Below the pieces are notes generated by a model. The model did not search any database and was not told the origin of the DNA. It worked only from the letters and a program-made list of their open reading frames with translations. Source: Strigamia acuminata (taxonomy: Eukaryota; Arthropoda; Chilopoda; Geophilomorpha; Linotaeniidae). From it: a DNA stretch of 64,000 nucleotides. Shown in pieces: positions 44,329-63,858 of the stretch (position 1 is its first letter; each line of letters begins with the position of its first letter). The DNA lies in NCBI GenBank assembly GCA_949358305.1, contig OX442314.1, positions 13,261,060 through 13,325,059 of the forward strand, read 5' to 3'. A program made the translations under genes and the position numbers.

Positions 44329-46029
44329 CTAAAAGTGCAATGGCTCAAAACTGGGCACTTTAATTGTGTTTTCGGTCATTTTATTCAGTGCCATATCCTC
44401 GATGCTAGCCAGAGCGGAGAACACTTGACCAGGAACATTTTCTTGCGACTGAAAATAGGTGCGCAACGAGCGCACCAAACCGAGCACGTCCTTGGGTTTG
44501 GGCGGCGGTTGTCCACATTCCTCCATATCCGCATCTTCGCCGGCGAGCCCGTGGCTGGCAGTGTCGTTAGAATCTGGTTGCGAAGCGTGCGGGACCCACT
44601 CGTTGATGGACGAAGAAGTTTGGTTCCACGTCTCCTCGCAGATCGGAAGGAACTCGTCAATGTCGATGTATTCTAAGGCAGACATTTTGTGAGTGATCTG
44701 ACAACGTTGCAAATAGGCCGCGATCAGTTTGTTTAGCACTTGCGCCTGGTGCGTGTACTCCTCCTGATTGATCATAATGTCTCCCGTCAACGGATGGATG
44801 AAGCCGGATTTACGAAAACAGCCCATGATGGTCACCGGACTCACCGAGTCCCATGCCCACGACAACATGTCCGCCGCGTCGCGCACCGTCGCGATTCTCC
44901 GCTCACCGACGTTCGTTTCGGCCAAAGCGTGTTGCAGCAATCTGCGCCGATAGTAGCACTTGGTCACTTGTTTGACCCCCTGCACTAAGGGGTGGTACAT
45001 GCCGGTGTTGGGCGGCAGGAAGCGCACTTCGGTCGCTTGGAGAAACACGTTGAGATGATGGGCGGGACAGTTGTCTATGAAGAGCAGAACTTTGCGTTGT
45101 TGCCATTTCATTTTCTCGTCGAATCGCAGAAACCATTTCTCGAAGAGAATCGCGTTCATCAGCGCCCGTTTGTCGGAACCGTACGTCACGGGGAGTGATT
45201 TGACGCCCTTGAACGATCTGGGGTTCGGAAATCTTCCGATCAAAAGCAATTTCTCCTTCTCGGAGCCGTCCATGTTGCAGCACAGAAGCGCCGTCAGTCT
45301 GTCCTTGTTCTGACCCGGCAGCGCCACGTTCTCCACCTTCTGTCGGAGCAAATCGTCGGGTAAAAGGTGGTAGAGGAACCCGGATTCGCCGGCTACGAAT
45401 ATATCTCGCGGAGCGTATTGTTGGAGGATCGAAGGCAACTCGTGTTGTTGCCAATCTCTGACAACGGCCATGCCTATCGACGACTTATCTTTGCCTCCTG
45501 CTTTAAAATGAATATTATGTCGCGATTTAAAACGTTCCAACCAACCATTGCTTGCCTTGAAATCGTTCCTGCCCAACACCTGCGCGAGTTCTTTCGCTTT
45601 GGTTTTCACCATCGGGCCACTGACCGACGCGTTTTTCGAGCACGCGTCGCGGTACCAGCGCAGTACGGAGTCTTCCACTTCCCCTATGGACGACGTGCGC
45701 ACTCTTTTCAGGGAAATGTTGTGGCATTTGTATTGGTTCATGATTTTCTCCTTGTTTTTGTAGATGGTCGATAGAGTGCTCTGAGAAATGCCGTATTCCT
45801 TTGCGATTTCGTTCTTCTGTCTCTTCGTCGATTCGACTTCGCGGATTATTTCGGCTTTGGTTTCGAGACTCAGCGCGCGTCTTCGGTGAATGGCTTCGAC
45901 TTTCTGCGATGTTTGGAGGTTTCTACTGATGGCTGATTTGGCTGATAGTTTGGCTTGTCTTTTATTGTTTTCGATTCTTGGTTCCAATTTCACGGGAGTT
46001 TCCACCAAATTGTACGTCGGTTCATTCAT
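44329..46029 (-). CDS. Tigger/CENP-B-like transposase-derived protein 1
   Basis: Intronless ORF of 566 aa from the ATG at 46029. Upstream of it the frame is open to 46071 but has no earlier ATG. Order: Psq/CENP-B N-terminal helix-turn-helix (residues about 45-85; EIAKEYGISQSTLSTIYKNK), second CENP-B/Tc5 helix-turn-helix (about 95-160), DDE-superfamily domain (about 190-370), then a poorly conserved linker and a conserved C-terminal block rich in aromatic and hydrophobic residues. The first catalytic Asp of the Tigger motif (normally DE[TS]G) is Gly (AGESGF), the second is kept (LLFIDNCPAH), and the third (normally LDQG) is Val (PLVQG). It is therefore likely a DNA-binding protein without transposase activity. 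The neighbour at 46596 is a paralogue. No terminal inverted repeats were found flanking it. Confidence 0.88.
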   Translation of the reverse strand: MNEPTYNLVETPVKLEPRIENNKRQAKLSAKSAISRNLQTSQKVEAIHRRRALSLETKAEIIREVESTKRQKNEIAKEYGISQSTLSTIYKNKEKIMNQYKCHNISLKRVRTSSIGEVEDSVLRWYRDACSKNASVSGPMVKTKAKELAQVLGRNDFKASNGWLERFKSRHNIHFKAGGKDKSSIGMAVVRDWQQHELPSILQQYAPRDIFVAGESGFLYHLLPDDLLRQKVENVALPGQNKDRLTALLCCNMDGSEKEKLLLIGRFPNPRSFKGVKSLPVTYGSDKRALMNAILFEKWFLRFDEKMKWQQRKVLLFIDNCPAHHLNVFLQATEVRFLPPNTGMYHPLVQGVKQVTKCYYRRRLLQHALAETNVGERRIATVRDAADMLSWAWDSVSPVTIMGCFRKSGFIHPLTGDIMINQEEYTHQAQVLNKLIAAYLQRCQITHKMSALEYIDIDEFLPICEETWNQTSSSINEWVPHASQPDSNDTASHGLAGEDADMEECGQPPPKPKDVLGLVRSLRTYFQSQENVPGQVFSALASIEDMALNKMTENTIKVPSFEPLHF

Positions 46030-46595
46030 CTTGATAAATGATGGTGGGAGGAGGAGTAATTTTTTTTTCAATCAAATCACACAAACAAATGACATGCGAA
46101 ATTGCAACTTCGATATTAAAACTGTCAAATTTGTCTTCCGAGAGAATCTGAAATGAAAATAAAAAGAGAGATTTAAATTTAGAATTTTTCTCTTTTTAAA
46201 TTAATTAAATTTTTTTTTTTAAATAAAAATATAAAAATAAAATAAAATCAGCTGAGGCTTGTGGTTCCAGTTTTAAAATTAATAATATTTCAGATTCTCT
46301 CTCTGAGACGTAAAGTAAAAATTGGGAAAAATTCATGTAAAATTTCACGTAAAAGACAGTTTTCTCTCTCTTTTTTTTATACAATAATTATAAAAAAAAA
46401 AAATCACCATTTGTCTACCTTCCAGTCGTCGTTTAGTGTCAACTCACTCAAAATATTCAAAACACCTAAATTCATTTAAATATACAAATCATTTACCACA
46501 TGAACCCATAGAAATTTTACACAATAAAAATAAAAAATAAAAATATAAGAACCGGCGAGAAGAAAAAAACTGGCAAATCACTCACACACTTATAA
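46030..46595. other. Spacer between the two Tigger-derived genes
   Basis: AT-rich 566 bp holding the 5' flank of the gene at 44329 and the 3' flank of the gene at 46596. A GAGAGAATCTGAAAT motif near 46139 is repeated in inverted form near 46291 (ATTTCAGATTCTCTCTC). One copy looks like a splice acceptor on the minus strand, so a 5' UTR intron is possible. No other gene is seen. Confidence 0.45.
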
Positions 46596-48302
46596 TTAAA
46601 AATGCATAAACTCCAGCCCAGGAGTTTTCAGCACATTCTCAGTCATCTTATACAAAACTGACTCTTCCAAATTCGCAAGCGCGGCGAACACTTGTCCCGG
46701 AATATTCTCCTGACTCTGGAAAAACGATCTCACAGACTGCAACATGTTCAACACCTCCTTCGGCTTGGGCGCCGGCTGCCCCAACTGCTCGTCGTCGTCC
46801 TCCTCCTCCGACTGATGCAGCGGCGGTTGCTGCGCCGCCTGACTCTGGTCCTGATTATTCGTCGGCGGCTGATTCGGATGCGGCAAAGGCGCCTGATTAG
46901 GCAGCTGATTCGGTTGCGGAAGCGGGAGTCCCCCCTGCGAAGCTTGCGGCTGCTGGCCGGGCCACGCGCTCATCACTGGCGAGCCCTGGTTCCAAGTGTC
47001 CTCGCAAACCGGCAGAAACTCGTCCACGTCGATGTACTCCAGCGCGGAGATTTTGTGAAGAACTCGCCGTCGCTGTAGGAAAGCCGCGATGAGAACGTTC
47101 AACGCTTGGACTTGGTGCGTGTACTCGTCCAAATTGATGGGGATCTCGCCCATGGCCGGGTGCATGAAGCCGGATTTTCGAAAACAACTCATGACGGTGG
47201 CGGGACTGACCGATTCCCACGCCCACGCGAGCATGTCGGCAGCATCTCGCACCGTAATCGGCTTCATTTTGTCCGGGTTTTGTTCCGCCAAGGCACGTTG
47301 CACGATGCGCCGCCTGTAATAGCATTTGGAGACTTGTTTGATGCCTTGCGACAACGGATGGTACATGGTGGTGTTGGGCGGCAGGAATCGCACTTCCGTC
47401 GCCTGCAAGTAAACGTTGAACCGGTGCGCCGGGCAGTTATCTATGAACAAAAGCACTTTGCGTTGCTGCCACTTCATTTTCTCGTCAAACCGCAGAAACC
47501 ACTTTTCGAACAGAACCGCGTTCATCAGCGCTCGTTTGTCGGACGCGTAAGTCACTGGCAGAGATTTGACGCCTTTAAAAGAGCGGGGGTTAGGAAATCG
47601 TCCGATTAACAGCAGTTTTTCCTTCTCGGAACCGTCCATGTTGCAGCAAAAGAGTCCCGTCAAGCGGTCCTTGTTTTTCTGTATGATTGGATTCGTGGCA
47701 CTTTTCTGCTTGACTAGATCATCCAAAGTTAAGTGGTAAAGAAAACCCGATTCGCCAGCGACAAATATGTCTCTGGGCGCGTACTGCTGGAGGATTGTGG
47801 GTAATTCGTGCTGCTGCCAGTCGCGGACCACAGCCATGCCGATGTTCGCCTTTTCCTTGCCGCCACTCTTAAAATGGATCCTGTGTCGTAGTTTGAAACG
47901 CTCCAACCATCCGTTGCTGGCTTTGAACGTGTTGTTGCCGACCACTTGCGCTAGTTCCTTCGCTTTGTTCTTGACCATGGGTCCGCTAACGGAGATGTTC
48001 TTCGAACACGCGTCGTGGTACCAGCGGAGAACGGCTTCTTCGACTTCGCCGATGCTCGACGTGCGAACTCGTTTGAGGGTCACGTTGTGCCGTTTGTACT
48101 GATCTAAAATCCTATCTTTGTTTTTGTAGATTGTGGATAGTGTACTGTGTGAAATGCCGTACTCTTTGGCAATTTTGTTTCTTTGTCGGTTCGAAGACTC
48201 TACGTCACGTATTATATCAACCTTAGTCTCTAGAGACAATGCTTTCCTTCTATTAGGAGTTCGCACTGGCGCAGGAGCCACAGCTGCTTCAGCCATTTTC
48301 AT
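46596..48302 (-). CDS. Tigger/CENP-B-like transposase-derived protein 2
   Basis: Intronless ORF of 568 aa starting at the ATG at 48302. It is similar over its whole length to the product of 44329-46029. The Psq helix-turn-helix is at residues about 20-68 and the second CENP-B helix-turn-helix at about 75-150. In the DDE domain the first catalytic Asp is Gly183 (AGESGF), the second Asp288 is kept (FIDNC), and the third is Ser318 (PLSQG). A Gln/Pro-rich linker occupies about residues 445-510 and is absent or different in the paralogue. The C-terminal block (SVRSFFQSQENIPGQVFAAL) is shared. Many third-base differences with no amino-acid change in the DDE region point to selection on the protein. 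This is a domesticated gene rather than a live transposon. Confidence 0.88.
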   Translation of the reverse strand: MKMAEAAVAPAPVRTPNRRKALSLETKVDIIRDVESSNRQRNKIAKEYGISHSTLSTIYKNKDRILDQYKRHNVTLKRVRTSSIGEVEEAVLRWYHDACSKNISVSGPMVKNKAKELAQVVGNNTFKASNGWLERFKLRHRIHFKSGGKEKANIGMAVVRDWQQHELPTILQQYAPRDIFVAGESGFLYHLTLDDLVKQKSATNPIIQKNKDRLTGLFCCNMDGSEKEKLLLIGRFPNPRSFKGVKSLPVTYASDKRALMNAVLFEKWFLRFDEKMKWQQRKVLLFIDNCPAHRFNVYLQATEVRFLPPNTTMYHPLSQGIKQVSKCYYRRRIVQRALAEQNPDKMKPITVRDAADMLAWAWESVSPATVMSCFRKSGFMHPAMGEIPINLDEYTHQVQALNVLIAAFLQRRRVLHKISALEYIDVDEFLPVCEDTWNQGSPVMSAWPGQQPQASQGGLPLPQPNQLPNQAPLPHPNQPPTNNQDQSQAAQQPPLHQSEEEDDDEQLGQPAPKPKEVLNMLQSVRSFFQSQENIPGQVFAALANLEESVLYKMTENVLKTPGLEFMHF

Positions 48303-48854
48303 ACGGCTTTAAAGAGTTATCTACCTGTGTAACATTCCTCTCCGAGACCACTCGCAAACAGCCGAAGGTGAATCATTTCTTATTTGTATTTCTGTATGGA
48401 TAAATAACAATAAAAAGTGTGTCAACAAATCAAATTAAGAAAATGTCTTATCAGTGACGTAAACAGTGAGTACCCTACATATGAACATTTGAGTTTCAAA
48501 GTACGATTAAAAATTTTGTTTAATTTCTAATAAAAAAAATTAAAAAATACGATTTAAAATGTTTTCATGAATTAAGATTAACAATTTTTTCATCTTGTAC
48601 ATCTTTGTTGGACTTACGAACAATTCGACTTGCAAACTCGTTTGCATGTAGGGGACGTAACTGTAAATGTAAACAAATGTAAACAAATGTAAACAAATGT
48701 AAACAAACACAAGTTTGTAGAATAAAAAAAAGAAATTTTCAATTTTTTAGCTGTTTTGCAGTTGAAATTTGTTTGCGGCACTGAAATCGACTCATTTTCT
48801 TGATAAATTAACAAAATTACCTTAAAATTATTATTATTATTATTTTACTTCAGT
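48303..48854. other. Spacer with 11-bp tandem repeat
   Basis: Upstream flank of the gene at 46596 and 3' flank of the HTD2-like gene. About four tandem copies of AAATGTAAACA lie at 48664-48708. No coding region was recognised. Confidence 0.6.
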
Positions 48855-49806
48855 TTAAGATTTTTGGATGATCAATTTCGCATTCCCTTTTAACACAATC
48901 TTAAAAAGAAAAAAAATATATATATTTAAAAATTCAATAAAATAATATATAAAAACACTCACAGCTGATCTTTCCAATACACTGCATGTATAATTCGCTT
49001 CGACTATTGTTTTCCTAACGTCAGTTATGTGAACTCGGGCAACAACGGTTTCCCCAATAAACACTAAAAAATATTTCATTTTTAAATAAAAAATAAATTG
49101 TAATTAGAAAATTCTTTATAATCCAATACATACATGGAGAAGTATATTCCAAATTCTGATTAACCACAATGCAACCCGCACCTGGTAATTTCGTGCCCAA
49201 AACAGCAGAAATCAATCTAGAAATTTAAAAAAAGAAAAAAAATAGACATGAGTAATTACACTCACGACACGACAATCGCTTAAATGATATCCTGGACTAA
49301 CATGAGATACATATCTGTATCTTTGCCTTGTTGTAATGACGAGGTGTGTTTTGGTTGGGCGCATTCGTTATTACAACGCAACTCGTTTATAGAACACCAA
49401 ATAACAAGCGAATCTACTGCAGAAAATTACGTCATTTTGATGCACGCGATCAAAATGAAAAGGCACTCGGTTACGAGAAAACGGAGGGAAAGCACTTTTC
49501 ATCGTTTCACAATGCAATCGTACGCTTGAAATTTGGGCCTAGCATACGCTAACTGCCATTTCTTTTTACGCACCCGTTCAAAAGAGCACCGTGTACGATA
49601 CAGCGACCGTATTTCGTACTGCGTGCAAACGCGGCATCCAGATGAATTGGGTTGTTGTCTCCGGAAATTCGAGCGAAATTTGCTACGTCTTGATACGTAA
49701 ATGTTCTCACAATTTCTGCAAAATCATTCACTGCAATGGTATAGAAACGTAAGTTAGGGAAAACGAACAAAGACCTCGCTAATACGCGCGGCCGACATAA
49801 TGCCAT
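48855..49806 (-). CDS. HTD2: Hydroxyacyl-thioester dehydratase type 2-like (MaoC)
   Basis: Probable mitochondrial fatty-acid synthesis enzyme (3-hydroxyacyl-ACP dehydratase). Four exons (49574-49806, 49134-49216, 48963-49063, 48855-48899) splice with agreeing phases into 153 aa; the human enzyme is about 168. The N terminus starting at the ATG at 49806 is Arg-rich without acids (MALCRPRVLARSLFVF), as in a mitochondrial presequence. The hotdog-fold R-hydratase motif is present (FARISGDNNPIHLD, with the catalytic Asp and His), followed by VHGALLNG, LGTKLPGAGCI and the GETVVARV strand. The ORF frame opens further upstream but without a better ATG. Confidence 0.87.
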
Positions 49807-50057
49807 CGTTATGGAGTGTCGCCTAGTGTCAATTATAAGCACTTTCTTATGTAAACACGATATTATCAAAAACAACTTTATTGAGAAAGCAGCAACTAGG
49901 AGACATTCTTAATTGTTTTTTTTTATGTTTATAGTTTGGCTTACTTTTTATTTTTATTTATTTACAGTGTTCGCTCAATTTTATACAACAACCATTTGAA
50001 TTACTGTACGTTTATAAAAACCTACTCCTGTAGGCGACATTTAAAGTTATATAATGC

Positions 50058-50066
50058 AATTTATTG
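50058..50066 (-). promoter_or_regulatory. Poly(A) signal for the small-ORF transcript
   Basis: AATAAA on the minus strand near 50060-50065, about 190 bp past the last small ORF. An acceptor (TTTCAG, near 50130) upstream of it suggests a 3' UTR exon. No other AATAAA was seen between the four ORFs in a position that would end a transcript. Confidence 0.5.
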
Positions 50067-50257
50067 TGTTTTAGGCACAACCTAAAAACAAAAATCCGAC
50101 TTATGTAGAAATAATCTTCTCGTCTGAAAGATTTAAATCACCAAATCACAAATCACCGATTGCTGTTTTTATATATTTTTTTCCATTGTTTCTTCATACT
50201 GTGATCAAAATTCAAACTTATTAAATTTAATAATTGTGAAAACAAAACTTCTTACTT

Positions 50258-50419
50258 TTATACGGCATGTATTAATAATTTTAGAATGACTAAGAAAATG
50301 TAAAAGACAATTAAAAGTGGGATGACGTGTCTAAGAAGAAAGTCATAGGTTTCGTCAACCGACTTCTTCGACAACATTTTCCTAAAGATTTTCTGAACGA
50401 TATTTTCATTTCGAAACAT
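50258..50419 (-). CDS. Small membrane protein ORF 4 (53 aa)
   Basis: Fourth and last ORF of the cluster. The 53-aa product starts at 50419: a basic N-terminal half (IFRKMLSKKSVDETYDF), then a single hydrophobic helix introduced by RHVIP and rich in Ile, Leu, Val and Phe, ending HAV. It resembles the three ORFs upstream in length, layout and the (H)xxIP step into the membrane. An acceptor TTTTCATCCAG lies 12 nt before the ATG, and removing the preceding intron also removes several upstream ATGs. A donor (AAAA|GTAAGA) follows the stop directly, at the place where ORFs 1-3 have their intron. Family unknown. Confidence 0.6.
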   Translation of the reverse strand: MFRNENIVQKIFRKMLSKKSVDETYDFLLRHVIPLLIVFYIFLVILKLLIHAV

Positions 50420-50555
50420 TGAATGACAATTCTGGATGAAAAGTTAGGGTTAAGCTAAACTCAACATTCATCCATTTTAAAGTAACAATAAATACAGTTC
50501 CCATTGTTTAGACAATCCAATTCGCCCTTTACAAATTACAAAGAAATCTTTTAAG

Positions 50556-50850
50556 TTAATATGCTGCCTCTTCATCCGCATGAGTGAATCGTCCAGCCAG
50601 ACTAATTCTGAGGATACAGAAAATTAAGTTCTTATTTTGAAAAAATTCGTTCTCAGTTTGTAACATCAAATTACACTTACAAAGTGGCATTTGCATATTT
50701 TACAAGAAAAATTATGAAATATATAACCGCAAGCATAGGTATAATGTGCATAAAAAGCATGTGATAATAAAGTCGAATGACATCACTGTCTAAAACATCC
50801 TCATCAAGGGTTTTCTTATCTTTGAAGCCATATAGTATAGTTATATTCAT
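50556..50850 (-). CDS. Small membrane protein ORF 3 (73 aa)
   Basis: Two exons, 50681-50850 and 50556-50607, joined in phase 2 (TT|A). The 73-aa product has an acidic N-terminal part (KKTLDEDVLDSDVIRLYYH), then MHIIP leading into one hydrophobic helix, a donor directly after the helix, and a short tail ending HADEEAAY. An acceptor (AAATTTTCAG) sits 19 nt before the ATG, with a matching donor just after the ORF 2 stop. I do not recognise the family; membership in the cluster is based on layout, motif and intron phase. Confidence 0.62.
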
Positions 50851-50941
50851 TTTAAATTAGCTGTTAAATCTGAAAATTTAAAATTACTTAACTCTAATAC
50901 CCAAAAAAATAAAAAATTAAATTAAATTTACTTGAGAAGTA

Positions 50942-51183
50942 TCACACTGGTGTTTGAACAAATCTTCTAGGCGGACTGTAAGTAACTAGACATTAATTCA
51001 TCCGGTTATTGATAACTACGTGTAGTTGAATACTTACTTAATTCGATTATATGTGTATATCGCTGAAGCATACAGTATAAACACAAGGATAACTGCAGGA
51101 GTGATATGAAAGAATAGGATATGAAACAAAAAGCGAGCTAGTCTATCAAGCAGTGACTGTTCATATTCATCATGAAATAGCAT
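50942..51183 (-). CDS. Small membrane protein ORF 2 (59 aa)
   Basis: Two exons, 51038-51183 and 50942-50975, joined in phase 2 (AA|T). The 59-aa product has an N-terminal segment with DEYEQSLLDRLARF, then FHITP opening a hydrophobic helix (VILVFILYASAIY), and a basic tail (PPRRFVQTPV). Its ATG at 51183 is only 18 nt from the stop codon of ORF 1, in the same exon, which is why I think the ORFs share a transcript. If the intron were retained the protein would stop one codon later, at 49 residues. Family unknown. Confidence 0.65.
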
Positions 51184-51201
51184 TCTTTGAATTTTCCAAA
51201 T

Positions 51202-51541
51202 TTAACGGCGAGAATTTCGAGAAGTTCGAGAAGTTCGAGAAGTTCGAGAATTGTGAGGAGAACTAAAAATGTAAAATAATAAATTATTTTTTATAATCTA
51301 ACTTAGTGACAATAAAAACTATATTTCATTAATTAATATACGTGTACTTATTATAACGGCCGGCAGTTTGCGGAATGAAATACAGAAAGATCAGCAAGCA
51401 GATGAATGGTATAATTAATAAATTAAATGAAAATTGAAGTAGACCGAGAATAATAGATTGCAATAGCCCGGTAACAACAGATTTCACTAGCAAGAAAATT
51501 GAAGAAATTATACCAAGCGGCGATTCATATCGCATGTCCAT
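51202..51541 (-). CDS. Small membrane protein ORF 1 (84 aa)
   Basis: Two exons, 51348-51541 and 51202-51262, joined in phase 2 (AA|T); 84 aa from the ATG at 51541. It has two hydrophobic segments: residues about 9-33, then residues about 38-58 with LLIIPFICLLIFLYF. The tail is an Arg/Ser/Thr run (SRTSRTSRTSRNSRR) encoded by a 9-bp tandem repeat. Upstream DNA (51542-51860) is a remnant of the neighbouring J-domain array. The similarity to ORFs 2-4 is weakest here and rests mainly on the IIP step, the intron position and phase, and the adjacency. Family unknown. Confidence 0.62.
51216..51251. repeat. 9-bp tandem repeat coding the ORF 1 tail
   Basis: About four copies of AGTTCGAGA (complement TCTCGAACT). 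In the ORF 1 frame each copy codes Ser-Arg-Thr, so the length of the basic tail can change by whole triplets of residues. Confidence 0.8.
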
Positions 51542-51559
51542 ACAGGGATCAGATGAAAG

Positions 51560-51860
51560 GTTTTAAATTCCAAAATATATAAAATCTGCTTAACTTCATG
51601 ATTAAAAAGCCTGAAAATTTAACATTGTCATAAAATGTTGTTGAAATTTAAAATGTAAAGCAACGAATAGTCAAAAAATAGAGCAAGAGGGAGCTGTAAA
51701 CAATGTGAATAACAATGTCATGATTCTTAACTCATTAATGTATCATATGAATAATTGTCACTTGAACAGATATCACATTTTTATTATTGGCGGTATAACT
51801 TACATTGAAATAAAAAAGAAATGAAATGAGGAGGAGGAAGTGGGTAAACAAAGATGCAGG
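51560..51860 (-). pseudogene. J-array unit 0, J gene deleted
   Basis: 51560-51832 matches the 3' flank of the J-domain genes (52830-53105, 56520-56790, 61880-62160). At GAAATGAAATGA it then jumps directly to GGAGGAGGAAG and TAAACAAAGATGCAGG, which is the 5' end of the unit (compare 55490-55535). The about 2.4-kb gene body between these points is missing. It lies just upstream of small membrane ORF 1 on the same strand. Confidence 0.75.
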
Positions 51861-53191
51861 TCACCGATCATTTCAATTCTTGGAGTGACAATAAACGGAT
51901 TTTAGCAAGTATGTGACAACTCATTTTAGCAAATTAAAATTAGACGATGACAATGTCCTCCAAAACTTCAATTTGACCACAGGGAACAAGAGATATTCAT
52001 CAAATCCAACAGGAAATGTCTGCGATTTTTTCCAAGGTCGGCACCCTTTTTTATGGTCCGGTGACCCTTTTCCCAAGACTCACAAGAGGATTCAAAACCA
52101 ATTAGCAGTAGTGCATTTGCCAGACTTGACGTCGCGAGTTTCATGCCAACTTCTTTCTTTGCATAAAAAATACATAAAATTATGTGAAAAGAATTATGCA
52201 CGCACAATGATGTATACAAAAGTAGATGAATTTCTATCGTAACATCTCATCAATATCAGGAAGGATATTTTATACGGAAATGTTGAAATAATGATGATTC
52301 AGAGCATCTTTGGCAGTAAATACGAATAAATATACTGGGTATACGAATACATAGTCGGGTCGTAAACCAAGGTATGCTCCAAGAAGTGACTCTTTTCTGC
52401 TAGGTGTCTTTATGTGGGATCGGAGAGGGAGAACAAATATGCAGTTTGCAGGTCACCTGCATTTAAATGACAATCAAGGGATTATAACAGACATGTGAGT
52501 AAACTCTTTTCGAAAAGCAAAATGAGAGATAATAACAGGTCCTCTAAAAAAATCAAATTTAACCAGATGAAACAAACGAGATAAACAAAAACAAAAAGTG
52601 ACTGCCGGTTTTGTCCAAGGTCGGCACCCCAAGGGTCCAAGGCTCATAAGAGGATTAAAACCTAATTGACCACCAAACAAATTGAAATACTCGAACAAAT
52701 ACCGCAAATTTTTATTTTAAAGATTATATAAAAAATGGAGCAAGAGAGAGAGAGAGCAATAAACGATGTGATAAATCTCAATCCATTAATATGTCAATTC
52801 CACACAGGAATCTGTAAAAGGCTTCAAATTCGAAAATATATAAAATCGTCTGCCTAACTCCGTGATTAAAATGTCTGAAAATCTAATGTTGTCGTAAAAT
52901 GTTATTAAAATTTAAAATGTAAAGCGACGAATTATAAAAAAAATATTTAAAAAATAGAGCAAGAGGGAGCTCTAAATGTGAATAACAATGTCATGATTCT
53001 CAACTCATTAATATATATCGTATGAATAATTGTCACTTGAACAGATATCACATTTTTATTATTGGCAGTATACAATGAAATTAAAAAGAAATGAAATGAA
53101 TTATGGTCTTCTCTCGCTTCTCGAAATATGGAAATTCGAATCTAACTCTAAATTATCACAGGCTTACTCTTTAATTTCCTTCCAGAGAAAG

Positions 53192-55467
53192 TCAATTCTC
53201 TAACCACTGCATCCAAACATAACAAATATGATCATAATCATCCGAATCTCGTTAAAAAGAATTGAAGTTTACCTTGTGAAGACGACTTAAAGTTCGACTC
53301 AACGCTTCCGCCAACATCTCATCCGCATCTATCAATATCGGTTTATTTCCTAAAACCAAGTGAGACGTCATTTTTGTAAATTTGCTGAAACAGAAGGAAA
53401 AGAGAACGCTTATTAACCATGAATCATATTTAATGTTAAAATTAAATTACTAGGAAATCAATTGACGACTTACAATAAATGCAAATCGAAATAGATCATT
53501 TGAAAGTCTAGACAGATTGAAACTCATCTTGATGTAATGTAATTGTGTAACAGGGTTGATGAGTTTCTTAGCCCGAGATGTCGTTGAAGTACACAAGTCA
53601 CGAATTGAATTTCTCAATTGATACATTTCTCGAAATGCGACTTGGTTAGTGCCCAACACGGACACATCCACTAGGATCCGTTTCATCTCTTGAAACAAGA
53701 AATTTGAAGCCAACATGAAAATCGAACAAACCATGGTCGAATCGTGTAAATTCGTACATAAATCAATGTAATGTAAAGCTGAAGCGACGTTAATGCTTTT
53801 GCCACTCCGTCTCGCTCTATCATACGTCAAGGGTGAACAGCTGTTAAGATGATTGCAATATTCATAATTAGCGGGAATGAGTACATCGTTGACAGTGACT
53901 TCTTCAGCTAAGCTAGCAATCATGGCTTTGATGTGTTTCGCGTAAAGCAAAGAAGCGACGGCAGAGTGCACTTCTTCACTTGGTAATAACATTACGGCAT
54001 TTTGGAAAGCTTTTAGTGATGCTTTATAATTCCTTTTATACCCAAAATAATGGCCCTTCAATATGAGGAGTGCAGCATCAAATCGAAGTAGATAGCTTCC
54101 ATTTCCACATTCTTTGATTATGGATATATCCTTAAACATCTCTCTCTCGATTGACATTCTGTCGTAGATCTCCCTTATTACGCTATCTCCATATTTGCGA
54201 AAGTGGCCCGATATTTTCTTCAAATATCCATCTTTATTTGCACAGAAGTCGTGCATCCAACCGCGTAAAACTTTAACTGTCTGCGAAAAATATAATTTGA
54301 AATGTATATTTTGTTTTTATTAGCACTTGCACTTGTCGATCAATCTTACCTCATCTTCACTCTGTCTAAGGGAACTGAACACTGCAGTTTTCCACTCCAC
54401 GTTTCTCAAATCTACGCAAAATTGTTCGATGTGTTCAAAGACGCTCTTATAAATTTTGCCATTATCAAAATTATCAACAAAATTTAAAGTATGGAACTCG
54501 TTGATCCATTCGTGGAATCTTCGTTGAAAAATTTCCGACAGTTTTTCGCCTCTTTTCAATCCCGTAAAAATCGTCTCTCTGTTTGCACCGTACTTATAAT
54601 CGTATTCCGCCCGATTTGCCGGATCGAATAGCGTGATTTTGGCTTTGTTTAAATTTTTCATCCACTCTTCACTTCCTCCCTTGTCTGGATGCGCCATTCT
54701 AGCCATAATCCGCCATGCGCTCCTAATCTCCGTAAATGTGGCGTCGCTTCGAACGCCAAGTAGAGCGTACAAGTCTATATCGTCACTTGTTTCGGACATT
54801 ATATTTTTGCAATCTGAAATGCAAATTATATAATTCAATCACTGTACCAATCAACGTGTAATCAACTTAAGTTCATTTTTTTAAATAAATAAATTACGAT
54901 TCTATCTGCACCCTAACTTGTAAGTAAAATAAAGATACCATCTCTATTTTCGCAAATTTTAAAACTATTCGTCCGCAATATGACAATTTCTTGATTTCGA
55001 CTCTTGTTTCACACAGCAAAATATAAAATATAAATAATATAAATAATAAATTTACTTTATTTATCTACGTATACCGGTGATCAAGTTTAATTCATTTTTT
55101 TGGCGTATAAATAAATTGAGATTTTTTTTACAGGCTAAGTAAAAGAAAAAAAAATCTTTCAGTTTTCTATTTTTAAGAAATGTAAAACCACGGCTCGTGG
55201 TAACACCATCAGTCAACACCATAACAATTTCTTTTGATTAATTTTACATAACACCGCAATAAATTCATTATTTCTTCAATCACCGATCTCAAAGAGTTAA
55301 TCCAAAAATCTAAATAATTTGAAATACTACCACTTACTCTTAACCTCGGTGCATTCGACAAGTTTCTCACAGAAGTGACTTCTTTTTCTCCTCTCTACAG
55401 TAGTCTCTTTGTTCACGGATGTGACGTCATTCCCATTAGCTAGAACCGAAGACGCATGCTCGCGCAT
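53192..55467 (-). CDS. J-domain (Hsp40) protein, array copy A, intact
   Basis: Putative Hsp70 co-chaperone. Exons 55338-55467, 54350-54813, 53451-54280, 53273-53384 and 53192-53206 join with agreeing phases into 516 aa. Residues about 57-120 are a J domain (LYALLGV, HPD motif at 85-87 in AHPDKGG, then LFDPANRAEYDYKY). After a helical region, exon 3 holds a TPR-like helix pair (KGHYFGYKRNYKASLKAF) and a long helical stretch of no known family. The protein ends WLEN. The start is taken as the ATG at 55467. The frame continues upstream through a poly-Leu stretch, but only from a TTG. An ATG inside exon 2 (54800) could give a shorter form. A poly(A) signal lies near 53058. The third exon junction uses GTAATTT (TA|C, Tyr). 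Confidence 0.8.
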
Positions 55468-56882
55468 GCTGAAGACGTGTCCATAAGATAGGAGGAGGAG
55501 GAGGAGGAGGAGGAGAGTAAACAAAGATGCAGGTGACCGGTCATTTCAATTCTTGGAGAGACAATAAACGGATTTTAGCAAGTATGTGACAACTCATTTT
55601 AGCAAATTAAAATTAGACGATGACAATGTCCTCCAAAACTTCAATTTCTCCAGAGGGAACAAGAGATATTCATCAAAGCCAACAGCAAATATCTGCTATT
55701 TTTTCCAAGGTCCGGTGACCCTTTTCCCAAGACTCACAAGAGGATTTAAAACCTATTAGCAGTAGTGCATTTGCCAGACTTGACGTCGCGAGTTTCCTTC
55801 AATAGAATGATCATGCCAACTTCTTTCTTCGCATAAAATAAAAATAAAATTATATGAAAAGAATTATGTACGCACAAAGATATATACAAAAGTATAGATG
55901 AATTTCTATCGTAACATCTCATCAATATCAGGAAGGATATTTTGTACGGTAATGTTGAAATAATGATGATTCAGAGCATCTTTGGCATAGTAAATACGAA
56001 TATATATACTGGGTATACGAATACATAGTCGGGTCGTAAACCAAGGTATGCTCCAAGAAGTGACTCTTTTCTGCTTGGTGTCTTTATGTGGGATCGGAGA
56101 GGGAGAACAAATATGCAGTTTGCAGGTCACCTGCATTTGAATGACAATCAAGGGATTATAACAGACATGTGAGTAAACTCTTTTCGAAAAGCAAAATGAG
56201 AGATAATAACAGGTCCTCTAAAAAAATCAAATTTGACTAGATGAAACAAACGAGATAAACAAAAACAGAAAGTGACTGCCGGTTTTGTCCAAGGTCGGCA
56301 CCCCAAGGGTCCAAGGCTCATAAGAGGATTAAAACCTAATTGACCACCAAACAAATTGAAATACTCGAACAAATACCGCAAATTTTTATTTTAAAGATTA
56401 TATAAAAAATGGAGCAAGAGAGAGAGAGCAATAAACGATGTGATAAATCTCAATCCATTAATACGCGAATAATTAATTGTCAATTCCATACAGGCATCTG
56501 TAAAAGGCTTCAAATTCGAAAATATATAAAATCGTCTGCCTAACTCCGTGATTAAAATGTCTGAAAATCTAATATTGTCGTATAAAATGTTATTAAAATT
56601 TAAAATGTAAAGCAACGAATTATAAAAAAAATATTTAAAAAATAGAGCAAGAGGGAGCTCTAAATGTGAATAACAATGTCATGATTCTCAACTCATTAAT
56701 ATATCATATGAATAATTGTCACTTGAACAGATATCACATTTTTATTATTGGCAGTACTGTATACATTGAAATTAAAAAGAAATGAAATGAATTATGGTCT
56801 TCTCTCGCTTCTCGAAATATGGAAATTCGAATCTAACTCTGAATTATCACAGGCTTACTCTTTAATTTCCTTCCAGAGAAAG

Positions 56883-59166
56883 TCAATTCTCTAACCACTG
56901 CATCCAAACATAACAAATAAGATCATAATCATCCGAATCTCTATAAAAAGAATTGAAGTTTACCTTGTGAAGACGACTTAAAGTTCGACTCAACGCTTCC
57001 GCTAACATCTCATCCGCACCTTCCAATATCGGTTTATTTCCTAAAACCAAGTGAGACGTCATTTTTGTAAATTTGCTGAAAAGAGAACGCTCATTAACCA
57101 TAAATCATATTTAATGTTAAAATTAAATTACCACGAATTCAATTGACGACTTGCAATAAATGCAGATCGAAATAGATCATTTGAAAGTCTAGACAGATTG
57201 AAACTCATCTTGATGTAATGTAATTGTGTAACAGGGTGGATGAGTTTCTTAGCCCGAGATGTAGTTGAAATACACAAGTCACGAATTGAATTTCTCAATT
57301 GATACATTTCTCGAAATGCGACTTGGTTAGTGCCCGACACGGACACATCCACTAGGATCCGTTTCATCTCTTGAAACAAGAAATTTGAAGCCAACATGGA
57401 AACCGAACAAACCATGGTCGAATCGTGTAAATTCGTACATACATCAATGTAATGCAAAGCGGCAGCGACGTTTATGCTCTTACCACTCCGTATCGCTGTA
57501 TCATACGTCGAGGGTGAGCATTTAAGATGATTGCAATAATCGTAATTAGCGGGATAGAGTACATCGTTGACAGTGACTTCTTCAGCTAAGCTAGCAATCA
57601 TGGCGTTGATGTGTCTCGAATAAAGCAAAGAAGCGACGGCAGAGTGCACTTCTTCACTTGGTAACAACATTACGGCATCTTGGAAAGCTTCAAGTGATGC
57701 TTTATAATTACTTTCATACCCCAAATAATGGCCCTTCAATAAGAGTAGTGCAGCATCAAATCAAAGTAGATAACTTCCGTTTCCAAATTCTTTGAATATG
57801 GACATATCCTTTAATATCTCTCTCTTATTTCTCATTCTGTCGTAGAGCTGCCTTATTACACTATTTGTATATCCATATTCGTGAAAGAAGTCCGATATTT
57901 TCTTCAAATATCCATCTTTATTTGCACAGAAGTCATGCATCCAACCGCGTAAAACTTTAACTGCCTGCGAAATATATAATTTGAAATGTGTATTACCGGT
58001 ATGTTTTTATTAGCACTTGCACTTGTCGATCAATCTTACCTCTTCTTCACTCTGTTTAAGGGAACCGGACCCTGCTGTTTTCCACTGCACGTTTGTCAAA
58101 TCTACGCATAATTGTTCGATGTGTTCAAAGACGCTTTTATAAATTTTGCCATCATCAAAATTGTCAACAAAATTGAAAGTATGGAACTCGTTGATCCATT
58201 CGTCGAATCGCTTTTGAAACATTTCCGACAGTTTTTCGCCTTTTTTCATTCCCGCGAAAATCGTATGTTTGTTTGCATCGTACTTATAATCGTATTCCGC
58301 CCGATTTGCCGGATCGAACAGCGTGATTTTAGCTTTGTTTAAATTTTTCATCCACTCTTCACTTCCTCCCTTGTCTGGATGCGCCGTTAACACCATAATC
58401 CGCCATGCCTTCTTAATCTCCGTAAATGTGGCGTCGCTTCGAACGCCAAGTAGAGCGTACAAGTCTATATCGTCACTTGTTTCGGACATTATACGGTATT
58501 TATGCAATCTGAAATGCAAATTATATAATTCAATCATTGTACCAATCAACGTGTAATCAACTTAAGTTCATTTTTTTAAATAAATAAATTACGATTCTAT
58601 CTGCACCATAACTTGTAAGTAAAATAAAGATACCGTGTCTATTTTCCCGAATTGTAAAACTATTCGTCCGCAATATGACAATTTCTTTCGATTTCGACTC
58701 TTGTTTTACACAGCAAAATATAAAATATAAATAATGTAAATAATATATTTACTTTATTTACCTGCGTATACCGGTGATCAAGTTTAATTCATTTTTTTGG
58801 CGTATAAATAAATTGAGATTTTTTTTACAGGCTAACTTGTAAGTAAAAGAAAAAAAAATCTTTCAGTTTTCTATTTTTAAGAAATGTAAAACCACGGCTC
58901 CTGGTAACACCATCAGTCAAAATCATAACAATTTCTTTTGATTAATTTTACATAACACCGCAATAAATTCATTATTTCTTCAATCACCGATCTCAAAGAG
59001 TTGATCCAAAAATCTAAATAATTTGAAATACTACCACTTACCCTTAACCTTGGTGCATTCAACAAGTTTCTCACAGAAGTGACTTCTTTTTCTCCTCTCT
59101 AGTCTCTTTGTTCACGGATGTGACGTCATTCCCACTAGCTAGAACCGAAGACGCATGCTCGCGCAT
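56883..59166 (-). pseudogene. J-domain gene, array copy B, broken
   Basis: Same exon layout as copy A. Exon 1 has a 5-nt deletion that shifts the frame, so it ends after KKKSLL. The start of exon 2 carries an extra 5 nt with an in-frame TAA before the internal ATG. In exon 3 a CGA codon of copy A has become TGA (57761-57763). After that the frame stays open for about 200 codons (57128-57763) and the last two exons (down to 56883) are intact. Using the exon 2 ATG, copy B could still make a J domain of about 225 residues ending SYLL. It may be a recent pseudogene or a truncated-product gene. Confidence 0.72.
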
Positions 59167-61035: not shown

Positions 61036-62254
61036 GCCAACAGCAAATATCTGCTATTTTTTCCAAGGTCCGGTGACCCTTTTCCCAAGACGGACAAGAG
61101 GATTTAAAACCAATTAGCAGTAGTGCATTTGCCAGACTTGACGTCGCGAGTTTCCTTCAATGGAATGATCATGCCAACTTCTTTCTTCGCATAAAAAATA
61201 CATAAAATTATGTGAAAAGAATTATGCACGCACAAAGATATATACAAAAGTAGATGAATTTCTATCGTAACATCTCATCAATATTAGGAAGGATCAGGTA
61301 AAAATTTTCGATTTTTTATACGGTAATGTTGAAAAAATGATGATTCAGAGCATCTTTGGCAGTAATACGAATAAATATACTGTATATACGAATACAGAGT
61401 CGGATCGTAAACGAAGGTTTGCTCCAAGAAGTGACTCTTTTCTGCTAGATGTCTTTATGGGGGATCGGAGAGGGAGAACAAACATGCAGTTTGCAGGTCA
61501 ATTGCATTTGAATGACAATCAAGGGATTATGACAGTCATGTGAGTAAACTCATTCTAAAAAGCAAAATGAGAGATATAAATAACAGGTCCTCTAAAAAAA
61601 TCAAATTTGACCAGATGAAACAAACAAGATAAACAAAAACAGAAAGTGACTGCCGGTTTTGTCCAAGGTCGGCACCCCAAGGGTCCAAGGCTCATAAGAG
61701 GATTAAAACCTAATTGACCACCAAACAAATTGAAATACTCGAACAAATACCGCAGATTTTCATTTTAAAGATTATATAAAAAATGGAGCAAGAGAGAGAG
61801 CAATAAACGATGTGATAAATCTCAACCCATTAATATGCGAATAATTAATTGTCAATTCCATACAGGCATCTGTAAAAGGCTTCAAATTCGAAAATATATA
61901 AAATCGTCTGCCTAACTCCGTGATTAAAATGTCTGAAAATCTAATATTGTCGTATAAAATGTTATTAAAATTTAAAATGTAAAGCAACGAATTATAAAAA
62001 AAATATTTAAAAAATAGAGCAAGAGGGAGCTCTAAATGTGAATAACAATGTCATGATTCTCAACTCATTAATATATCATATGAATAATTGTCACTTGAAC
62101 AGATATCACATTTTTATTATTGGCAGTACTGTATACATTGAAATTAAAAAGAAATGAAATGAATTATGGTCTTCTCTCGCTTCTCGAAATATGGAAATTC
62201 GAATCTAACTCTGAATTATCACAGGCTTACTCTTTAATTTCCTTCCAGAGAAAG

Positions 62255-63858
62255 TCAATTCTCTAACCACTGCATCCAAACATAACAAATAAGATCATAA
62301 TCATCCGAATCTCTATAAAAAGAATTGAAGTTTACCTTGTGAAGACGACTTAAAGTTCGACTCAACGCTTCCGCTAACATCTCATCCGCACCTTCCAATA
62401 TCGGTTTATTTCCTAAAACCAAGTGAGACGTCATTTTTGTAAATTTGCTGAAAAGAGAACGCTCATTAACCATAAATCATATTTAATGTTAAAATTAAAT
62501 TACCACGAATTCAATTGACGACTTGCAATAAATGCAGATCGAAATAGATCATTTGAAAGTCTAGACAGATTGAAACTCATCTTGATGTAATGTAATTGTG
62601 TAACAGGGTGGATGAGTTTCTTAGCCCGAGATGTAGTTGAAATACACAAGTCACGAATTGAATTTCTCAATTGATACATTTCTCGAAATGCGACTTGGTT
62701 AGTGCCCGACACGGACACATCCACTAGGATCCGTTTCATCTCTTGAAACAAGAAATTTGAAGCCAACATGGAAACCGAACAAACCATGGTCGAATCGTGT
62801 AAATTCGTACATACATCAATGTAATGCAAAGCGGCAGCGACGTTTATGCTCTTACCACTCCGTATCGCTGTATCATACGTCGAGGGTGAGCATTTAAGAT
62901 GATTGCAATAATCGTAATTAGCGGGATAGAGTACATCGTTGACAGTGACTTCTTCAGCTAAGCTAGCAATCATGGCGTTGATGTGTCTCGAATAAAGCAA
63001 AGAAGCGACGGCAGAGTGCACTTCTTCACTTGGTAACAACATTACGGCATCTTGGAAAGCTTCAAGTGATGCTTTATAATTACTTTCATACCCCAAATAA
63101 TGGCCCTTCAATAAGAGTAGTGCAGCATCAAATCAAAGTAGATAACTTCCGTTTCCAAATTCTTTGAATATGGACATATTTTTAAATATCTTTCTCTCAT
63201 TTCTCATTCTGTCGTAGAGCAGCTTTATTACACTATTTGTATATCCATATTCCCGAAAGAAGTCCGATATTTTCTGCAAATATCCATTTTTATTTGCACA
63301 GAAGTCGTGCATCCAACCGCCTAAAACTTTAACTGTCTGCGAAAAATATAATTTGAAATGTATATTTTGTTTTGCACTTGTCGATAAATCTTACCTCTTC
63401 TTCACTCTGTGTAAGGGAATTGACCACTTTTGTTTTCCACTGCACGTTTCTCAAATCTACGCCTAATTGTTCGATGTGTTCGAAGACGCTTTCATAAATT
63501 TTGCCATTATCAAAATTGTCAACAAAATTGAAAGTATGGAACTCGTTGATCCATTCGTCGAATCGCTTTTGAAACATTTCCGACAGTTTTTCGCCTTTTT
63601 TCATTTCCGTGAAAATCGTATGTTTGTTTGCATCGTACTTATAATCGTATTCCGCCCGATTTGCCGGATCGAATAGCGTGATTTTAGCTTTGTTTAAATT
63701 TTTCATCCATTCTTCACTTCCTCCCTTGTCTGGATGCGCCATTAACGCCCTAATCCGCCATACCTTCTTAATCTCCGTAAATGTGGCGTCGCTTCGAACG
63801 CCAAGTAGAGCGTACAAGTCTATATCGTCACTTGTTTCGGACATTATATTTTTTCAAT
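62255..63858 (-). pseudogene. J-domain gene, array copy C, broken (partial)
   Basis: Exons 2 to 5 are visible; exon 1 lies beyond the window. Exon 2 opens A|AT TGA if spliced as in copy A, a stop caused by one base change. The internal ATG then starts an intact J domain (HPDKGG). Exon 3 has the same TGA as copy B (63133-63135). From about 63178 down to 62255 the sequence is almost identical to copy B, while exon 2 differs from both A and B at many residues (KVWRIRALMAHPD). This mosaic suggests gene conversion with copy B. Confidence 0.7.

What the first reader, a model, noticed from the sequence alone, without database searches (positions are those of the whole stretch)
50050..51541. Four tiny membrane-protein ORFs that look like one polycistronic spliced mRNA
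On the minus strand, ORFs of 84, 59, 73 and 53 codons follow one another within 1.3 kb. ORF 1 stop (51202) and ORF 2 ATG (51183) lie in one exon 18 nt apart. A 62-nt intron with GT...AG borders separates the ORF 2 stop from the ORF 3 ATG, and a similar intron separates ORF 3 from ORF 4. One AATAAA follows the cluster. Animal mRNAs with several small ORFs are known (tarsal-less/pri, sarcolamban), but I do not recognise these proteins. Reading as one transcript is inference; trans-splicing at the acceptors before ORFs 3 and 4 would be an alternative and equally notable.
Basis: partly seen in the sequence, partly recalled or inferred. Interest (0 to 1): 0.87.

Follow-up and report, generated by a model that had tools for sequence, protein, structure and literature searches.

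The report
Four-ORF membrane microprotein gene cluster
A 1.5 kb stretch of an animal chromosome carries four tiny membrane-protein reading frames that are repeated 18 kb away in the same layout, and two of the four have changed their amino acids unusually fast, which suggests real but unstudied proteins; whether they share one messenger RNA needs RNA data.

Summary
The four ORFs are there and beyond chance: 0 of 3000 dinucleotide shuffles gave more than two. A second full-length copy (B) lies 18.5 kb away with the same order and splice-site dinucleotides; two partial copies lie nearby, one split by an LTR-type insertion; no other match at E<=0.001 in the 237.5 Mb assembly. The cluster belongs to a tandem array whose unit was DnaJ gene + ORF1-4. 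ORF2-ORF3 and ORF3-ORF4 look paralogous; ORF1 is marginal. Introns and flanks are 89-98% identical between A and B, ORF1 only 81%, ORF4 78%, with excess replacement changes (joint omega 4.2, p=0.0003; none of the five other frames significantly above 1). This supports coding and diversifying selection. ORF2 looks conserved; ORF3 is frameshifted in B. The 84-codon ORF1 is not conserved; an unspliced 66-70 aa form is. One spliced polycistronic transcript is the simplest reading: one AATAAA, conserved GT/AG pairs, gaps of 18, 31 and 51 nt, and a conserved 64-nt intron that puts the first AUG after ORF3 in frame with ORF4. It is unproven without RNA. No homologue or family was found.

The parts
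51202..51541 (-). ORF1: unspliced 51541-51329 (70 aa) or spliced 51541-51348 + 51262-51202 (84 aa); very hydrophobic. Fast-evolving.
   Evidence: 81% nt identity to copy B against 94% in the flank; omega 3.5, p=0.023
50942..51183 (-). ORF2: exons 51183-51038 + 50975-50942 (59 aa; 49 aa if unspliced)
   Evidence: splice dinucleotides and C-terminal exon kept in copy B; dN 0.050, dS 0.176, p=0.057
50556..50850 (-). ORF3: exons 50850-50681 + 50607-50556 (73 aa; 57 aa if unspliced); frameshifted in copy B; split by an insertion and degraded in the third copy
50258..50419 (-). ORF4: 53 aa, Lys/Arg-rich start, C-terminal TM-like segment; open in four copies (A, B, C, D). With the 64-nt intron it extends to AUG 50504 (60 aa).
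   Evidence: omega A/B 8.5, p=0.001
50432..50495 (-). 64-nt putative intron before ORF4 (GTATTT..CATCCAG), sites kept in A, B, C and D; joins the first AUG after ORF3 (50504 in A) in frame to ORF4 in A and, with the equivalent upstream AUGs, in B and D, not C
50976..51037 (-). 62-nt putative intron inside ORF2 (GTAAGT..ACAG), 61/62 aligned bases identical in copy B
50871..50930 (-). 60-nt putative intron between ORF2 stop and ORF3 ATG
50608..50680 (-). 73-nt putative intron inside ORF3
51263..51347 (-). 85-nt putative intron inside ORF1 (weak donor GTACAC); not needed for the conserved ORF1
51542..51829 (-). T5: region upstream of ORF1 with a conserved GTAAGT (51803) and TTTACAG (ending 51694) pair; in unit E the homologous stretch follows the stop codon of the DnaJ gene's last exon directly
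50060..50065 (-). AATAAA, the only one between the ORF1 start and 50000 on this strand; kept in copies B, C and D
53100..54799 (-). DnaJ-domain gene copy U1 of the same tandem array (this unit lacks the small ORFs)
56791..58489 (-). DnaJ-domain gene copy U2 (in-frame stop in exon 2)
62163..63844 (-). DnaJ-domain gene copy U3 (in-frame stop in exon 2)

Best explanation
A family of single-pass membrane microproteins, found only at this locus in this genome, born by tandem duplication inside a unit that also carried a DnaJ-domain gene, and most likely transcribed as one compact, cis-spliced multi-ORF RNA ending at one poly(A) site. Ribosomes would reach the later ORFs by leaky scanning or reinitiation across gaps of 18, 31 and 51 nt that hold no AUG once the 64-nt intron before ORF4 is removed. 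The peptides would sit in a cellular membrane by a helix that begins near a conserved proline. ORF2 keeps a constrained role, while ORF1 and ORF4 were driven to diverge, as expected of peptides that bind a changing partner (pathogen, mate or selfish element). Shown: ORFs, duplication, paralogy of ORF2-ORF3 and ORF3-ORF4, excess amino-acid replacement in ORF1 and ORF4. Inferred: transcription as one unit, splicing, translation, membrane location, the nature of the partner.
For: Second full-length cluster with the same order and splice dinucleotides. In-frame 15-nt indels in ORF1 and ORF4. ORF1 replacement changes 33/139 against 30/576 in nearby non-coding sites, p=7e-10; ORF4 30/115 against 39/412, p=1e-5; synonymous changes not significantly raised (5/44, p=0.09; 4/29, p=0.51); ORF1+ORF4 replacement against synonymous p=0.0099. 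The non-coding pools left out ORF3 exon 2 (9/52), and the ORF1 pool held the 51262-51184 exon (3/52); changing either choice leaves p at 5e-5 and 1e-9. Pairwise codon ML: ORF1+ORF4 omega 4.2, p=0.0003; trimmed alignment omega 4.0; 0 of 120 neutral simulations reach it; the other five frames give omega 0.29-2.14, none significantly above 1, with 5-26 codon pairs lost to stops each. ORF4 between B and C is constrained: 3/153 against 50/568 around it, p=0.0026. Paralogy shuffles: 13/2000 (ORF2-ORF3), 10/2000 (ORF3-ORF4). One terminal AATAAA. No AUG in the first two gaps; a 64-nt intron with sites kept in 4 of 4 copies gives ORF4 an upstream in-frame AUG in 3 of 4.
Against: No RNA, ribosome or peptide data. 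Omega over 1 rests on the A/B pair; ORF4 A/D (omega 3.1, p=0.083) and B/D (1.67, p=0.45) are not significant, and NG86 tests per ORF are not either (ORF1 0.09; ORF4 A/B 0.155, A/C 0.22, A/D 0.81). Gene conversion between copies could distort rates. ORF2 purifying selection is only suggestive (p=0.057, 0.195). ORF3 is broken in B and disrupted in the third copy; ORF1-2 are lost from D and reduced to a piece in the third copy: part of the array is decaying. ORF2-ORF4 direct similarity is absent (823/2000), ORF1 paralogy weak (96/2000), and 11 pairs were tested without correction. Unspliced, four AUGs lie between ORF3 and ORF4; the donor of the 64-nt intron (GTATTT) is weak; copy C lacks the in-frame AUG. 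No orthologue from another species was available.
Confidence: 0.53

Rival explanations
1. Four small tandem genes, each with its own promoter and transcript; the closeness is just the result of tandem duplication in a compact genome.
For: ORF2-ORF3 and ORF3-ORF4 are paralogous; ORF4 survives without intact ORF1-3 in copies C and D; unspliced, four AUGs precede ORF4.
Against: Gaps of 18, 31 and 51 nt (spliced) leave little room for promoters; only one AATAAA.
Confidence: 0.2
2. A polycistronic precursor resolved by spliced-leader trans-splicing at acceptors before ORF3 (50870) and ORF4 (50431).
For: Both acceptors are conserved between copies, that of ORF4 in all four.
Against: Conserved cis GT sites lie 60 and 64 nt upstream of the two acceptors; mitochondrial gene strands suggest an arthropod, where SL trans-splicing is not general (both recalled). 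SL1 search uninformative.
Confidence: 0.07
3. Decaying remains: the cluster was once part of a longer unit and is now drifting, with the high replacement rate reflecting relaxed constraint.
For: ORF3 frameshift in B, insertion and losses in the third copy, losses in D; DnaJ copies U2 and U3 have a stop codon, and DnaJ pairs of this group have omega 0.33-1.31 in 15 of 16 comparisons, 2.28 (n.s.) in one.
Against: Relaxation gives omega near 1 and equal rates in ORFs and introns; here ORF1 and ORF4 replacement rates exceed nearby non-coding rates about 4.6- and 2.8-fold, and ORF4 is open in four copies.
Confidence: 0.15
4. Non-coding sequence whose AT-rich composition mimics small hydrophobic ORFs.
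For: AT-rich region (30% GC); hydrophobic ORFs arise easily from T-rich codons.
Against: 0 of 3000 shuffles reach three; frame-specific substitution signal.
Confidence: 0.05

Closest known systems
sloth1/sloth2 (Drosophila CG32736/CG42308; human SMIM4/C12orf73)
   Same: Paralogous single-TM microproteins (79 and 61 aa, 27% alike) on one transcript with a very short gap (abstract and passages seen, PMC9681215).
   Different: Two ORFs, conserved in other eukaryotes, mitochondrial complex III; here four ORFs, no homologue found, two fast-evolving, in an amplified array. Not compared sequence to sequence; Pfam gave no match over cut-off.
tarsal-less/pri and sarcolamban loci
   Same: Multicistronic transcripts encoding smORF paralogs (as stated in PMC9681215).
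   Different: Those peptides are shorter (recalled); here 49-84 aa with putative introns between and inside ORFs; one transcript unproven.
Drosophila dicistronic and polycistronic gene models (FlyBase)
   Same: 159 dicistronic pairs, seven tricistronic, two tetracistronic sets in release 6.04; about 18% of polycistronic loci hold similar genes; stop-to-start gaps -34 to 319 nt in polycistronic-only loci (passages seen, PMC4528330). Gaps here (18, 31, 51 or 136 nt) fall inside.
   Different: Those rest on transcript evidence; four related TM ORFs with diversifying selection do not appear in the passages I saw.
DUF4519 (PF15012)
   Same: Weak match of ORF4 (E=0.046, 14.3 bits) over residues 18-46.
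   Different: Far under the curated cut-off of 27 bits.

Membership tests
Polycistronic paralogous smORF locus (sloth/tal/sarcolamban type) | Two or more smORFs on one mature mRNA | not testable with these tools
   No RNA data; layout compatible
Polycistronic paralogous smORF locus (sloth/tal/sarcolamban type) | At least two of the smORFs are paralogs of one another | tested here: met
   ORF2-ORF3 13/2000, ORF3-ORF4 10/2000 shuffles; ORF2-ORF4 not direct (823/2000), ORF1 marginal (96/2000); 11 pairs tested
Polycistronic paralogous smORF locus (sloth/tal/sarcolamban type) | The frames are under protein-level selection | tested here: met
   ORF1 and ORF4 on the A/B pair; ORF2 suggestive (p=0.057 and 0.195); ORF3 not shown
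Polycistronic paralogous smORF locus (sloth/tal/sarcolamban type) | Conserved in other species | not testable with these tools
   No related genome is held; protein search of ORF2 found no candidate
Sloth/SMIM4 or other known microprotein family | Sequence match to a curated family | tested here: not met
   Pfam: none over cut-off for the four ORFs, searched in unspliced form; PDB sequences: nothing for ORF4 below E=0.67
Spliced-leader operon | SL RNA gene and SL reads at internal acceptors | tested here: inconclusive
   Rfam SL1 gave no match, but neither did the 14 control genomes; no reads
DUF4519 (PF15012) | Score above curated cut-off | tested here: not met
   14.3 of 27 bits

The most novel reading that the evidence does not exclude
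The unit DnaJ gene + four membrane microproteins is a conflict module: a tetracistronic set of TM peptides in which ORF1 and ORF4 diversify under an arms race (defence, gamete recognition or a toxin-antidote-like selfish element) while ORF2 stays fixed as a partner, and copies have split into chaperone-only and peptide-only units.
Probability: 0.12. Interest if true: 0.85.

Novelty: new variant of a known kind. Interest (0 to 1): 0.56.

Why it matters
Multicistronic mRNAs with several related microproteins are few in animals, and the studied ones are conserved (sloth; others recalled). A tandem set whose introns are better conserved than two of its reading frames would show that polycistronic microproteins can also be the fast-changing side of an evolutionary conflict. 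It also shows how paralog comparison inside one genome can detect coding smORFs.

Tried and rejected
Chance AT-rich ORFs: rejected by shuffles. In one search the observed count was 3 because ORF1 touched the edge of the stretch; repeated with more flank. The count of four for B includes an out-of-frame ORF in the broken ORF3 region, so B has three true members open.

I raised the one-transcript odds slightly for that (0.50 to 0.53) and lowered separate genes and trans-splicing by 0.02 and 0.01.

Viral origin of the unit: two viral-contig scans, with DnaJ-protein exon 1 and with its last exon, found no relative; the protein database gave one weak DnaJ-domain hit. This does not exclude it.

Known family for the peptides: Pfam, PDB sequence and protein searches negative; only ORF2 went to the protein database and only ORF4 to the PDB search (1 of 4 ORFs each).

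Species: cytochrome oxidase on contig C157 and gene strands suggest an arthropod, by recall only; not settled.

Structure prediction was not run: single helices without an alignment would say little.

Apart from passages of PMC9681215 and PMC4528330 I saw listings only.

Full report
WHAT IS THERE. The window is C1:13261060-13325059 of a 237.5 Mb, 157-contig genome. On the minus strand between 51541 and 50258 lie four ATG ORFs, each with a strongly hydrophobic segment. Downstream on this strand a MaoC-domain frame starts at 49806. In 3000 dinucleotide shuffles of the 1611-nt stretch the count of non-overlapping TM-like ATG ORFs of at least 48 aa was 0 (2769), 1 (226) or 2 (5), against 4 observed.

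COPIES. Protein and DNA searches of the genome found the cluster once more in full, at C1:13331057-13329557 (copy B; window scale 69998-68498), plus partial copies D (ORF4 with part of its flank) and C/E, all within 33 kb; matches elsewhere had E of 2.8 or worse, and the DNA search showed none at E<=0.001 (only the best candidates are scored by that tool). Coordinates above 64000 continue the window's numbering into flanking sequence that I fetched. C (end of ORF3, ORF4) and E (pieces of ORF1 and ORF3) are two halves of one copy: between them lies a 6914-nt insertion with identical 1161-nt terminal repeats, and the ORF3 sequence resumes on the other side with a few bases repeated, as an LTR-type element would leave it. 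The A/B alignment shows the GT and AG of the four listed junctions, the acceptor before ORF4 and the AATAAA at 50065 unchanged.

THE ARRAY. In order on the minus strand the unit is: upstream region, DnaJ-domain gene, its last exon, a 288-nt stretch T5, ORF1-ORF4, AATAAA. The C/E copy keeps a 467-codon open DnaJ frame, T5 and pieces of the ORFs together; B joins a DnaJ remnant to the full cluster; A keeps T5 and the ORFs only; units U1-U3 at 54.8, 58.5 and 63.8 kb keep the DnaJ gene and lose the ORFs about 18 nt after the ORF1 start. The DnaJ family has 8 matches at E<=0.001 in the genome (13 candidates scored), all in this region.

ARE THE ORFS CODING? Identity between A and B by segment: 5' flank 94.4%, intron 1 94.1%, exon 51262-51184 94.2%, intron 2 98.4%, ORF2-ORF3 gap 94.4%, intron 3 88.9%, ORF3-ORF4 gap 92.6%, 3' end 89.9%; ORF2 exons 93.2 and 94.4%, ORF3 exons 91.1 and 82.7%, ORF1 81.2%, ORF4 78.4%. 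In ORF1 and ORF4 the changes are mostly replacements: ORF1 dN 0.288, dS 0.117; ORF4 dN 0.328, dS 0.130. Replacement rates exceed nearby non-coding rates (p=7e-10 and 1e-5), synonymous rates do not significantly; replacement against synonymous, pooled, p=0.0099. Codon likelihood gives omega 3.5 (p=0.023) for ORF1, 8.5 (p=0.001) for ORF4 A/B and 4.2 (p=0.0003) jointly; ORF4 A/D 3.1 (p=0.083) and B/D 1.7 (p=0.45) are not significant. Dropping ambiguous codons leaves omega 4.0 (2dL 8.9); the five other frames give 0.29 to 2.14, none significantly above 1; 0 of 120 neutral simulations reach the joint statistic. ORF2 goes the other way (dN 0.050, dS 0.176, p=0.057; ML omega 0.41, p=0.195). ORF3 has 7 replacement and 0 synonymous changes before a frameshift in B. 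ORF4 of B and C is better conserved than their flanks (3/153 against 50/568, p=0.0026), but sequence exchange between copies could do the same. DnaJ pairs of this group show omega 0.33-1.31 in 15 of 16 comparisons and 2.28 (p=0.14) in one, so the excess is particular to ORF1 and ORF4.

RELATIONSHIP OF THE ORFS. With shuffles made inside and outside the TM segment separately, of 11 pairs tested ORF2-ORF3 (13/2000), ORF3-ORF4 (10/2000) and ORF3-ORF4 of B (8/2000) stand out; ORF1-ORF2 and ORF1-ORF3 are marginal (96/2000 each); the other six are not significant (249 to 1841 of 2000). The start Met and one proline at the beginning of the TM segment are the only invariant columns in seven aligned sequences. 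The simplest history is an internal tandem duplication, with ORF1 very diverged or independent.

ONE TRANSCRIPT? For: one AATAAA, conserved cis sites, short gaps. A 64-nt intron before ORF4 (GT at 50495, AG ending 50432) has its sites kept in 4 of 4 copies, and when removed an AUG upstream of the donor reads in frame into ORF4 in A (60 aa), B (67 or 78 aa) and D (70 aa), not in C; in A against B this needs a 13-nt deletion and a one-base insertion to cancel. The stop-to-start gaps then are 18, 31 and 51 nt without an AUG between, inside the -34 to 319 nt range of fly polycistronic-only loci (PMC4528330, passages). ORF1 has T at -3, ORF2 and ORF3 have A at -3, so leaky scanning past ORF1 is plausible. 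Against: no RNA evidence; GTATTT and GTACAC are weak donors; AUGs inside the upstream ORFs are many. T5 carries a conserved GTAAGT..TTTACAG pair, so a leader intron is likely. Promoters cannot be placed from sequence. I rate a shared transcript for at least two of the ORFs at about 0.6 and for all four at about 0.45 (judgement).

COMPARISON AND VERDICT. It would work most like sloth1/sloth2 and other multicistronic smORF paralog loci (PMC9681215, abstract and passages), but no named sequence family was matched and the defining feature, one mRNA, is untested. What is unusual is the combination: four TM microproteins, birth inside an amplified DnaJ unit, and diversifying selection on two of them. 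Function is inferred from that pattern only.

Noticed in passing
44329-46071 and 46596-48308 (-): Two long tandem single-exon open frames (580 and 570 codons, stop to stop), 73.5% identical over 1257 nt; the first matches DDE_1, Tc5 and CENP-B_N domains, the second was not searched. Possibly domesticated transposases.
   Followed up: partly
C1:13315382-13366656 (window 53100 to about 105600 on the extended scale): Array of eight DnaJ-domain genes with no other match at E<=0.001 in the genome; the distal group has further long exons after the DnaJ part (open frames of about 295, 350 and 435 codons) with no Pfam match over cut-off.
   Followed up: partly
extended window scale 83105-76192 (-): 6914-nt insertion in ORF3 of the third cluster copy with identical 1161-nt terminal direct repeats, holding a 1446-codon open frame of low complexity; identical repeats suggest a recent LTR-type insertion.
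   Followed up: partly
extended window scale 107-128 kb (+): Tandem series of short-chain dehydrogenase-like exons next to the DnaJ array (name by recall).
   Followed up: no
G000:C8:11426218-11426364: Fragment matching mitochondrial COX1 on a large contig, probably a numt.
   Followed up: no
extended window scale 108557-108874: Short tandem repeat array (copies offset by 21 nt) with long open frames on both strands.
   Followed up: no
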